A DNA stretch of 64,000 nt from Glycomyces tenuis DSM 44171 (lineage in GTDB: Bacteria; Actinomycetota; Actinomycetes; Mycobacteriales; Micromonosporaceae). The translations under genes were made by a program, and so were the position numbers. Every line of letters begins with the position of its first letter. The stretch's first letter is position 1. The DNA lies in NCBI RefSeq assembly GCF_000427885.1, contig NZ_KE386602.1:1-64000 (forward strand), read 5' to 3'. Shown piece by piece: positions 42,333 to 44,385 of this stretch. The notes below the pieces were generated by a model. That model ran no database searches and was not told the DNA's origin. It worked only from the letters and a program-made list of their open reading frames with translations.

Positions 42333-43445
42333 GTGATCGCGAGATCCCCCCACCAGCAGCTGCGCCGCCGCGGCTCGAACGCGGCGACGCTCGCCGCCTT
42401 GCGACTCACACGCCAGATCGGCGAGGCCCTCGCCGACGGGCTCCCCGGCAGGCACGCCGACGACGCCGCCCGCCGCCTCGCCCGCCTCCTCGGCGCCGAC
42501 GCCGTCGCCCTCGCCGACTGCGACCGCGTCCTCGCCGCCTGGGGCCGCCTCGACGCCGCCGCCGCCGCCCAGATCCTCGCCGAAGTCCTCGACGAGCTCG
42601 ACACCGTCACCGACCCGCCGCTGCGGGCCGCGCCCCTCCTGGTCTCCGGCGACCTCGCCGGAGGCCTCATCGTCGCCGGCGACGTCACCGACGCCGAGGT
42701 CGCCGAGGCCGCCCGCCTCGTCGCCACCGCTCTCGACCACGCCGAACTCGACCGCTCCCGCGAACGCATCGCCGCCGCCGACCTGCGCACCCTCCGCGCC
42801 CAGATCTCGCCCCACTTCATGCACAACGCACTCGCCGCCATCAGCGCCCACACCCGCACCGACCCCGAGCGCGCCCGCGAGCTGCTCTCCGACTTCTCCG
42901 ACTACCTGCGCTACTCCTTCGCCGCCACCGGCGACTACGCCACCGTCGCCGACGAGCTCCAGGCCGTCCAGACCTACCTCGAACTCCAGCGGGCCCGCTT
43001 CGACGACCGCCTCGACATCACCGTCCAGATAGCGCCCGAGGTGCTGCCCGTCGCCATCCCCTTCCTCGTCGTCCAGCCCATCGTCGAGAACGCCATCCGC
43101 CACGGCTTCGAATCGCGGCCCGGCACCGGCCACATCGCCGTCCGCGGCTTCTCCGAAGGGCCCCTGTGCGTCATCGAGGTCGAAGACGACGGCGACGGCA
43201 TGGACCCCGAACACGCCAAAGCCGTCCTCACCGGCACCGGCCCGCCCGCCTCCCGCCACCCGACCTGGAGTGCGTCCTCTCCCCGCCCCGACGGCACCGC
43301 CGGCATCGGCCTCGCCAATGTCGACCGGCGCCTGCGGGCCGTCTACGGTCCCGAGTATGGCCTCCTGCTCGACACCGCCCCCGGCGCCGGCACCAAGGCC
43401 ACCGTCCGCATACCCCGCTACGCCCGAGGAGTCCTCGCCCAGTGA
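42333..43445 (+). CDS. LytS/YehU-type sensor histidine kinase
   Basis: 370 residues, GTG start. Residues 25-145 form a GAF-like soluble sensor without membrane helices. The His_kinase domain has H161 in ISPHFMHNALAAI, then the ATPase with VQPIVENAIRHGFE, EVEDDGDGMD and GIGLANVDRRL. Between the D and G boxes lies an insertion (about residues 302-325, GTGPPASRHPTWSASSPRPD) absent from standard relatives and homologous to the repeat in the partner regulator. The stop overlaps the regulator start (GTGA). It probably reports intracellular carboxylate levels to the LytTR regulator. Confidence 0.92.
   Translation: MIARSPHQQLRRRGSNAATLAALRLTRQIGEALADGLPGRHADDAARRLARLLGADAVALADCDRVLAAWGRLDAAAAAQILAEVLDELDTVTDPPLRAAPLLVSGDLAGGLIVAGDVTDAEVAEAARLVATALDHAELDRSRERIAAADLRTLRAQISPHFMHNALAAISAHTRTDPERARELLSDFSDYLRYSFAATGDYATVADELQAVQTYLELQRARFDDRLDITVQIAPEVLPVAIPFLVVQPIVENAIRHGFESRPGTGHIAVRGFSEGPLCVIEVEDDGDGMDPEHAKAVLTGTGPPASRHPTWSASSPRPDGTAGIGLANVDRRLRAVYGPEYGLLLDTAPGAGTKATVRIPRYARGVLAQ
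43236..43300 (+). repeat. in-frame repeat element, copy inside the kinase gene
   Basis: Starting ACCGGCCCGCCCG and including CGCCACCCGACCTGGAGTG and CGCCCCGAC, this segment aligns with the element in the regulator gene (43955 onward) in the same order and the same reading frame. It adds a Pro/Ser/His-rich loop to the kinase ATPase domain. Confidence 0.65.
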
Positions 43446-44341
43446 AACGCCTCCGCGTCCTCGTCGTCGAAGACGAGCCCTCCACCCGCGCCGAACTCGC
43501 CGGCCAGCTCGCCGAGCAGCCCAGTGTCGGCGACGTCGTCTGCGCCGACGGCGGCAGCGAAGCGATCCGCCTGCTCGGCTCGGGCAGTTTCGACGCGGCC
43601 TTCCTCGACATCGCCATGCCCGGCATCAACGGCATGGACGTCGCCCGCGTCCTCACCCGCCTGACCGACGCCCCCGCCATCGTCTTCGTCACCGCCTACG
43701 ACAACCACGCCGTCGACGCCTTCGGACTCGGCGCCGTCGACTACCTCCTCAAGCCATTCCGCCCCGAACGCCTCGCCGAGGCCGTCGCCCGCATCGACCA
43801 CCACCGCTCCGGCTCCGCCACCACCGGGGAGAAGGCCGACGACCTCGCCGTCGTCCAGGTCGAACTCGCCGGGCGCACCGTCTTCATCCGCCGCGACGAC
43901 ATCGCCTACGCCGAGGCCCACGGCGACTACGTCAGACTCCACATCGGACCGGGTACCGGCCCGCCCGTCACCCACCGCCACCCGAACCGGAGTGAACACC
44001 CTCCTCACCAGCCCGTCACCCACCGCCACCCGAACCGGAGTGAACACCCTCCTCACCAGCCCGTCGCCTCCCACCGCCCCGACTCGAGCAGACGCGAATC
44101 GGTGCTGCTGCGCCAGTCCCTCACCTACCTCGAACAGGTCTGGGACGCCGCCGGATTCGTCCGAGCCCACCGCTCCTACCTCGTCAACCTCGCCGCGATC
44201 ACCGAACTGCGCGTCACCTCCACCGCCGGGCTCGTCGCCGTCACCGAGGCCGGCGAGGTCCCCGTCAGCCGCCGCCACTCCCGCCTGCTGCGCGAACGCC
44301 TCCTCCAAGCCGCCCGCAGCGACGACCGGAGCCGCCCCTGA
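43442..44341 (+). CDS. LytTR-family response regulator with repeat insertion
   Basis: 299 residues, GTG overlapping the kinase stop. The receiver (1-118) has acidic D12-E-D region VVEDE, phospho-acceptor D56 (FLDIAMPG), Thr in FVTAYDN and KPF. The LytTR DNA-binding domain starts near residue 140 (VFIRRDDIAYAEAHGDYVRLH). It is interrupted at about 170-220 by an insertion with two exact 16-residue units, then resumes ESVLLRQSLTYLEQVW...FVRAHRSYLVNL. The insertion falls in a loop between strands, where length variation may be tolerated. It likely activates one or both symporter genes. Confidence 0.9.
   Translation: MKRLRVLVVEDEPSTRAELAGQLAEQPSVGDVVCADGGSEAIRLLGSGSFDAAFLDIAMPGINGMDVARVLTRLTDAPAIVFVTAYDNHAVDAFGLGAVDYLLKPFRPERLAEAVARIDHHRSGSATTGEKADDLAVVQVELAGRTVFIRRDDIAYAEAHGDYVRLHIGPGTGPPVTHRHPNRSEHPPHQPVTHRHPNRSEHPPHQPVASHRPDSSRRESVLLRQSLTYLEQVWDAAGFVRAHRSYLVNLAAITELRVTSTAGLVAVTEAGEVPVSRRHSRLLRERLLQAARSDDRSRP
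43955..44100 (+). repeat. in-frame repeat element with exact 48-bp tandem duplication
   Basis: Two identical 48-bp units (43967-44014, 44015-44062) encode VTHRHPNRSEHPPHQP twice. They are preceded by ACCGGCCCGCCCG (43955-43967) and followed by CGCCTCCCACCGCCCCGAC, and both flanks are shared with the kinase copy. A weaker relative, CGCCCGAACCCGACCGGAGTGAA, lies after the regulator gene at about 44352-44374. Confidence 0.85.
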
Positions 44342-44385
44342 CCGCCGCGCCGCACGGCGCCCGAACCCGACCGGAGTGAAGGCCG

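What the first reader, a model, noticed from the sequence alone, without database searches (positions are those of the whole stretch)
43236..44374. A related repeat is carried in frame by both partners of a two-component system
The kinase (43236-43300) and its regulator (43955-44100) share flanking blocks ACCGGCCCGCCCG and CGCCCCGAC and the core CGCCACCCGA-C-GGAGTG. They are in the same reading frame and inserted in surface loops of the ATPase and LytTR domains. In the regulator a 48-bp unit is duplicated exactly. A decayed relative follows the regulator gene. This resembles the protein-coding palindromic elements of Rickettsia but in an actinobacterium, and it would add matching Pro/His-rich loops to two interacting proteins.
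Basis: partly seen in the sequence, partly recalled or inferred. Interest (0 to 1): 0.75.

Follow-up and report, generated by a model that had tools for sequence, protein, structure and literature searches.

The report
In-frame mobile repeat in Glycomyces genes
A tiny DNA repeat, about 48 letters (16 codons) long, appears to have jumped into the middle of many unrelated, often core, genes of the soil bacterium Glycomyces without breaking their reading frame, so the proteins carry short extra loops; the two sensor-system genes in this window are two of many such hits.

Summary
The repeat in kinase and regulator belongs to a dispersed 48-bp (16-codon) family whose full-length form I found only in Glycomyces. 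A model of it finds 39 matches in this genome (related partial elements included) and 2-26 in 21 relatives. Orthologue comparison shows in-frame inserts in 14 unrelated genes: RecG, ThrC, HemW, CoaBC, DapF, LysA, RibE, a transporter ATPase, four more and the two here; nearly all have clean empty sites in other species. The 14 genes use three reading frames, all giving hydrophilic peptides (PPVSHHHPNRSE, RPSPTTTRTGVNA, SGSGGGGRR). Sites recur: the transporter site is filled at the identical nucleotide in three separate lineages (3 gains versus 7 exact losses); the CoaBC linker is filled in 8 of 22 species, by two element subtypes. It works like the Rickettsia palindromic elements but is not palindromic (no fold better than shuffles) and leaves no target duplication above 2 bp in the five filled copies tested; no mobilising enzyme was identified (one family tested). 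'Matching loops for two partners' is not supported: the kinase copy is decayed and the element hits unrelated proteins. Best label: new variant of small non-autonomous mobile elements that insert in frame.

The parts
42333..43445 (+). LytS-type histidine kinase (His_kinase PF06580 + HATPase_c PF02518), host of one decayed copy
43239..43292 (+). decayed in-frame element copy in the ATPase domain of the kinase (net +42 bp versus G015, +36 versus G021, +48 versus the other genomes compared)
43442..44341 (+). LytTR response regulator (Response_reg PF00072 + LytTR PF04397), 299 aa, host of three tandem units
43964..44011 (+). 48-bp element unit 1 (with CCCG prefix from 43960), peptide PVTHRHPNRSEHPPHQ
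44012..44059 (+). 48-bp element unit 2, exact duplicate of unit 1
44060..44099 (+). unit 3, read as an older decayed copy; the same site holds a 15-16 aa insert in sister species G015 and G020, while the other regulator orthologues have a short loop
   Evidence: weak by sequence alone
44360..44389 (+). CCCGAACCCGACCGGAGTGAAGGCCGATGA: ribosome-binding region and start of the next gene; resembles the right end of the related 71-bp 'type D' element that some relatives carry here; relation not established

Best explanation
The repeat is a very small non-autonomous mobile element, about 48 bp, of the genus Glycomyces. Because it is a multiple of three long and five of its six frames are open in most copies, it can land inside a gene and be translated as a hydrophilic, probably disordered 15-17 residue loop. 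SHOWN: a dispersed family; filled and empty orthologous sites; in-frame inserts in 14 genes, on both strands; three hydrophilic frames among those 14; several units in tandem at some sites (three in this regulator, two in a polymerase-A-family gene, five in one intergenic array); filled sites at identical or near-identical positions in separate lineages; old copies that decay while the frame stays open. INFERRED: it is copied or moved in trans by an unidentified enzyme with some target preference; inserts survive only in loops or linkers that tolerate them; the effect on the host is neutral or slightly harmful. In the window, the regulator insertion predates the split from two sister species and later gained two units. 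The kinase insertion is a separate event.
For: 17 places with up to 3 mismatches to a 20-base core in the own genome, 0 with the reversed-pattern control. Sequence-only model R1: 39 matches in the own genome at E <= 0.01, 2-26 in 21 genus relatives (only the best 150 candidates per genome were scored; among the listed own-genome matches 16 cover at least 41 of 51 positions, others are partial matches to related elements). In 40 other genomes of the order, 29 have none, 9 have one and two of one genus have 8 and 10, limited to the 5' part. Orthologues in up to 10 genomes: RecG +45 bp, filled in 1 of 10; HemW +48 antisense, 1 of 10; DapF +48, 1 of 10; RibE +51, 1 of 10; LysA +48 antisense, 1 of 9; DUF1015 protein +45, 1 of 7; an unnamed protein +45 in 1 of 9 with a decayed +30 in another; GH42 enzyme +45/48, 4 of 8; ThrC +48 in G000 and an insert at the same place in G018. 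No frameshift in any. Kinase and regulator. Transporter site over 22 genomes: filled in G007, G010, G021 at the identical position, unfilled in 19; 3 gains versus 7 losses. CoaBC filled in 8 of 22, by two element subtypes. Flank identity does not group carriers.
Against: No mobilising enzyme was identified, and only one family was tested: Y1 (REP-type) transposase genes are found in 7 of 22 genus genomes, in 3 of the 6 copy-rich ones (G000, G009, G015) and in none of G010, G018, G020. No target duplication above 2 bp fits without extra mismatches in five filled copies from four genes, and no terminal inverted repeat, so no transposition signature is in hand. No direct observation of movement: all evidence compares species, not strains. 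Termini are fuzzy by a few bp (by inspection). The polymerase-A insert lies in a loop that varies in length among species. Low-copy genus genomes (2 matches) are near background for weak matches. The regulator's third unit is weak by sequence.
Confidence: 0.85

Rival explanations
1. The inserts are a selected feature: matching Pro/His-rich loops that help the kinase and the regulator interact or sense something.
For: Both partners carry a copy in the same frame, and in several other species related elements lie at the junctions of this operon.
Against: The kinase copy is decayed (SRHPTWSASSPRPDG) and does not match the regulator peptide; the sister species G015 lacks the kinase insert; the same element sits in RecG, ThrC, HemW, CoaBC, DapF, LysA, RibE and others, in three frames.
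Confidence: 0.04
2. The similarity is compositional: GC-rich Pro/Arg/His linkers that arose independently.
For: The sequence is simple and C-rich; the third regulator unit and the post-regulator stretch are at window background.
Against: The DNA is conserved in intergenic and antisense copies and across three reading frames; model E-values reach 1e-15; reversed-pattern control 0.
Confidence: 0.02
3. It is a REP-type element moved as single-stranded DNA by a RAYT/Y1 transposase.
For: No target duplication above 2 bp and no terminal inverted repeats; related elements in this and other actinobacterial genera have the same 5' module followed by a GC hairpin; Y1 transposase genes occur in 7 of 22 genus genomes, the own genome included.
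Against: No Y1 match at E <= 0.001 in three of the six copy-rich genomes; the 48-bp type has no supported hairpin. Whether Y1 genes lie next to element copies was not examined.
Confidence: 0.25
4. Insert-bearing alleles spread by homologous recombination between species, not by movement of the element.
For: Carriers are scattered on the tree for several sites.
Against: Flanking DNA of carriers is not closer than carrier/non-carrier pairs: CoaBC 0.849 versus 0.845, transporter 0.843 versus 0.859, GH42 0.821 versus 0.821, ThrC 0.892 versus 0.890; CoaBC carries two element subtypes at nearly the same place; it would not explain singletons such as RecG, HemW, DapF, LysA.
Confidence: 0.07

Closest known systems
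Rickettsia palindromic elements (RPE; original papers not seen, known here through passages of reviews PMC2229807 and PMC10969869)
   Same: Short dispersed repeat found both between genes and in frame inside conserved protein genes; similar scale (19 genic cases in the first report, per PMC2229807); read as tolerated insertions.
   Different: RPE are given as 105-146 bp with terminal inverted repeats and long stem-loops; this one is 48 bp, without such repeats, in a high-GC actinobacterium, and recurs at identical sites in separate lineages.
GTAG/CGTC-tagged REPs, including intragenic ones (PMC3733652: passages and sections 6 and 15)
   Same: Small size; intragenic copies, also in DNA polymerase I genes; CGTC types are said to lack a dedicated transposase; the 5' module here contains CCCGTC.
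   Different: REPs are a stem-loop next to the tag; the 48-bp type has no supported stem. CGTC dimers are mostly head-to-head, arrays here are head-to-tail.
Mycobacterial interspersed repetitive units (MIRU; one passage of PMC12548453; their place in a two-component operon and DTGA target are recalled)
   Same: Short, reported to insert at start codons with translational coupling; the related 71-bp 'type D' element lies at start/stop junctions of this operon in other Glycomyces species.
   Different: The 48-bp type sits inside genes; sequence relation to MIRU was not tested.
Small dispersed repeats of cyanobacteria (recalled; the paper itself was not seen, only papers that mention it were listed)
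   Same: Very small mobile repeats without obvious transposase (recalled).
   Different: Different lineage; size, sequence and coding use not compared.

Membership tests
Rickettsia palindromic elements | dispersed short repeat inside unrelated protein genes, in frame, with empty orthologous sites | tested here: met
Rickettsia palindromic elements | palindromic / terminal inverted repeats forming a long stem | tested here: not met
   longest self-complementary arms 3.9 nt on average in 39 copies versus 4.1 in shuffles, first and last 10 nt not complementary; folding z-scores near 0; 3' stem test
Rickettsia palindromic elements | sequence homology to RPE families | not tested
   no RPE sequence was fetched
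REP (GTAG or CGTC tagged) | tag followed by an 8-9 bp stem and short tail (CGTC definition, PMC3733652 section 6) | tested here: not met
   48-bp type: (longest arm 6 nt in any of 39 copies)
REP (GTAG or CGTC tagged) | RAYT (Y1 transposase) accompanying the family | tested here: inconclusive
   PF01797 in 7 of 22 genus genomes including G000, but in none of G010, G018, G020; CGTC REPs are said to lack one anyway
MITE of a DDE transposon | terminal inverted repeats and target duplication | tested here: not met
   five filled copies (four genes) against 12 empty sequences in all: no duplication above 2 bp without extra mismatches; no terminal repeats
MIRU | insertion at start/stop overlaps of operons | tested here: inconclusive
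   the 14 sites compared were chosen because they are genic; intergenic 48-bp copies were not examined for this; type D copies do lie at such junctions

The most novel reading that the evidence does not exclude
A 48-bp element, part of a wider actinobacterial class of 'conserved 5' module plus variable 3' half' repeats, is moved by unidentified, target-selective machinery that has placed it repeatedly at the same nucleotide of core genes in independent lineages, adding hydrophilic 16-residue loops to core enzymes; a natural, recurrent in-frame insertion system without a recognisable transposon end.
Probability: 0.35. Interest if true: 0.8.

Novelty: new variant of a known kind. Interest (0 to 1): 0.64.

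Why it matters
In-frame selfish insertions into housekeeping proteins are best known from Rickettsia, obligate intracellular bacteria where weak selection is an easy explanation (that contrast is recalled). Here the same outcome appears in a 5.7-Mb high-GC actinobacterium, in RecG, ThrC, DapF, LysA, CoaBC and others, with before/after pairs across the genus. That gives a set of natural experiments on how enzymes tolerate a new 16-residue loop. The repeated use of the same insertion site makes the question of the mobilising enzyme testable.

Tried and rejected
Hairpin in the 3' half (GAGT/ACTC): rejected, 86 observed pairs versus a shuffled mean of 86.4. Palindrome or terminal repeats in general: not found. 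Target duplication: none above 2 bp without extra mismatches in five filled copies from four genes. RAYT/Y1 transposase as present-day mobiliser: distribution does not fit well (3 of 6 copy-rich and 4 of 16 other genus genomes have a match). Introgression as the cause of scattered carriers: not supported. Vehicles: an exact 20-base pattern found nothing in viral contigs, and BLAST of the regulator insert found nothing in plasmids or phages. AlphaFold of the kinase: too poor to use. G-quadruplex on the G-rich strand: considered from the conserved CCC tracts, not tested. Literature: eight searches listed no paper whose title or shown abstract start reports this repeat or in-frame mobile repeats in Glycomyces; the library holds open-licence papers only.

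Limits and rows dropped: 11 of 40 non-genus genomes of the order have at least one R1 match at E <= 0.01, so isolated weak matches mean little. 4 of 11 stretches found by the pattern scan are in other taxa and look like chance. Searches score only the best 150, 144 or 24 candidates per genome, and printed lists were cut. The model R1 was built from 29 rows chosen from 37 candidates after 14 loci were left out as chance or type D. I fetched 40 stretches around model matches, not every match. For 12 genes, orthologues come from a choice of 10 of 22 genus genomes, and not every gene was compared in all ten; all 22 only for CoaBC and the transporter. TrpD was in the query but was not compared. The 39 copies include tandem units and orthologous copies. 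Types B, C and D were described by eye, not counted.

Full report
WHAT IS IN THE WINDOW. Two overlapping genes, a LytS-type kinase (42333-43445) and a LytTR regulator (43442-44341), lie between two sodium:solute symporter genes. The kinase holds one decayed copy of a repeat (43239-43292). The regulator holds two exact 48-bp units (43964-44011 and 44012-44059), followed by what I read as an older decayed unit (44060-44099). The kinase copy scores 43 against the family consensus; none of 2000 dinucleotide shuffles reaches this, and the best place elsewhere in a sliding scan of the window scores 33. The third regulator unit (32) and the stretch after the regulator (31) are at window background by sequence alone.

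A GENUS-WIDE FAMILY. The window's genome (G000, 5.74 Mb, 44 contigs) holds 17 places that match a 20-base core with up to 3 mismatches and none that match the reversed pattern. Named records place the family in Glycomyces: 7 of 11 stretches found by one exact pattern scan belong to five named Glycomyces species; the other 4 lie in other taxa and lack the surrounding element. A sequence-only model of 29 copies (R1) finds 39 matches in G000, 26 in G015, 22 in G010, 21 in G018, 17 in G009, 13 in G020 and 2-6 in the other 16 genus genomes at E <= 0.01 (best 150 candidates per genome scored). The 39 include partial matches to related elements; 16 of the listed own-genome matches cover at least 41 of 51 positions. 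Among 40 other genomes of the order, 29 have none, 9 have one, and two of one genus have 8 and 10. The consensus is CCCGCCCGTCNCCCACCACCACCCGAACCGGAGTGAACGCTGTACTCA.

IN-FRAME INSERTIONS WITH EMPTY SITES. I compared 12 further genes across up to ten genus genomes, the regulator across 22 and the kinase across 21 (no kinase was found on the G020 contig). Families were named by Pfam/NCBIfam. RecG: +45 bp shortly before the GDVGSGKT motif in G000, empty in 9. HemW: +48 bp, antisense, in G000, empty in 9. DapF: +48 in G009, empty in 9. RibE: +51 in G018, empty in 9. LysA: +48 antisense in G009, empty in the 8 others compared. DUF1015 protein: +45 in G015, empty in 6. Unnamed protein: +45 in G015, a decayed +30 in G000, empty in 7. 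ThrC: +48 after codon 7 in G000 and an insert at the same place in G018; G003 and G020 differ there by 2-3 residues. GH42 enzyme: filled in G009, G010, G015, G018, empty in 4. CoaBC and an oligopeptide-transporter ATPase are treated below. A polymerase-A-family gene has two antisense units in G000, in a loop that varies in length among species, so it is less clean. In no case was the frame broken. The regulator loop is short in most species; G015 and G020 carry an insert of 15-16 residues at the same place, and G000 has two more units (+96 bp versus G020, +99 versus G015). The kinase insert is absent in G015 and in the other genomes compared.

READING FRAMES. In 39 scored copies (tandem and orthologous copies included) one sense frame has a stop in 33; the other five are open in 26 to 38. 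Frames used by the 14 genes are PPVSHHHPNRSE (ThrC, RecG, transporter, kinase, regulator), RPSPTTTRTGVNA (CoaBC, DapF, RibE, DUF1015, unnamed, GH42) and the antisense SGSGGGGRR frame (HemW, LysA, PolA). Two further antisense frames, STAFTPVRVVVGDGR (open in 38 of 39) and VQRSLRFGWWWETGG (open in 26), are not seen, but only three of the 14 genes have antisense copies, so this is suggestive only. It fits survival of hydrophilic inserts. AlphaFold of the regulator puts the insert (172-217, pLDDT below 50) as a coil between two strands of the LytTR domain. The kinase model is unusable.

THE SAME SITE IS HIT AGAIN. Over 22 genomes the transporter site is filled in G007, G010 and G021 at the identical nucleotide; 19 are unfilled, 18 with the 9-nt state and G020 with 6 nt. 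On a midpoint-rooted tree of kinase, regulator and flanks of the two site genes this needs 3 gains, or 7 losses that each restore the original length. CoaBC is filled in 8 of 22: the 48-bp type in G010, G015, G018 and, decayed, G000; a type D with hairpin or its derivatives in G002, G014, G009; G020's insert is too decayed to assign. The 14 unfilled genomes have 12 nt (13) or 15 nt (1); 6 gains or 8 losses. CoaBC positions may differ by a few bases. Flank identity does not group the carriers, so introgression is not supported. Either the mobiliser prefers certain targets or very few sites tolerate an insert; exact coincidence at the transporter site favours the first. This is inference.

RELATED ELEMENTS. 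The 5' part of the element recurs with other 3' parts: in a MITE of the own genome with long terminal inverted repeats (IS5-like by recall, not tested) that contains 55-bp tandem units in some copies; in a 71-bp 'type D' with a GC hairpin that sits at start/stop junctions of this very operon in several relatives; with a hairpin in two genomes of another genus of the order; and in genomes of two further genera of the class (8 of 246 genomes including G000 have a match at E <= 5e-4, with only 24 candidates scored per genome). This suggests a wider modular family of which the coding-compatible 48-bp type is the Glycomyces branch (inference).

MECHANISM. Shown: insertion of a unit of about 48 bp, several units in tandem, decay. 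Not shown: the enzyme. Y1 (REP-type) transposase genes are in 7 of 22 genus genomes: three of the six copy-rich ones (G000, G009, G015), none of the other three (G010, G018, G020), and four of the 16 others. No other enzyme family was tested. No viral-contig, plasmid or phage match. Five filled copies from four genes show no target duplication above 2 bp without extra mismatches; the copies are no more self-complementary than shuffles and do not fold better than shuffles.

COMPARISON WITH THE LITERATURE. A review gives Rickettsia elements of 105-146 bp with terminal inverted repeats, in frame in 19 genes, one (gmk) with measured activity (PMC2229807, passages); another gives about 150 bp, ten families and 44 integrations in R. 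conorii genes (PMC10969869, passages). CGTC-tagged REPs, some of them Rickettsia elements, also occur inside genes and are said to lack a transposase (PMC3733652, passages and sections 6 and 15). MIRUs are reported to insert at start codons with translational coupling (PMC12548453, one passage). The present element works like the Rickettsia ones but fails the palindrome test, so I do not file it as a member. Eight library searches listed no report of it; most subscription papers are not held.

VERDICT. The two-component pairing is most likely incidental; the finding of interest is the genus-wide in-frame mobile element and its repeated use of the same sites.

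Noticed in passing
L006, L130, L131, L134, L136, L137, L140 (own genome), L147, L148 (G010): A MITE of roughly 270 bp with long terminal inverted repeats (IS5-like by recall), in several copies starting at CTAG near a gene end, contains the same 5' module and in some copies 55-bp tandem units (by eye).
   Followed up: partly
L002/L003 (own genome C1:418883-419090), L150 (G015), L051/L058 (G020): An intergenic head-to-tail array of 47-bp units, 5 units here; similar arrays with matching left flank and different unit numbers in sister species: a possible VNTR marker.
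   Followed up: no
L080, L082, L087, L088, L089, L090, L091 (kinase-regulator and regulator-next gene junctions): A related element, about 71 bp with a GC hairpin in some, ends in GGAGTGAACGCYGATGA-like sequence and so supplies ribosome-binding site and start codon at operon junctions, as described for mycobacterial MIRUs.
   Followed up: partly
L280, L281, L293-L303 (genus g27 of the same order): About 55-bp repeats with the same 5' module followed by a CACGCTCCGCGTG-type hairpin, several shortly upstream of a possible start codon.
   Followed up: partly
L352-L359 (genera g64 and g49 of the class): The same 5' module followed by GC hairpin-like sequence; in G117 and G192 it follows an ATG and could read as an N-terminus MSxRPSPTTxL.
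   Followed up: no
L072:1-938 (G020): No kinase is found upstream of the regulator in G020; what looks like the end of a TnpB/IS605 OrfB gene lies there instead, on a 4.7-kb contig (real insertion or assembly break; gene name by eye).
   Followed up: no
L004:1501-1551 (own genome), L167 (G021): The element lies at the 5' end of a Fur-family regulator gene, where it may change the start codon or leader.
   Followed up: no
L086/L092 (G016): A long simple repeat of GCGAAC units lies between kinase and regulator; the two loci are near-identical, on two contigs.
   Followed up: no
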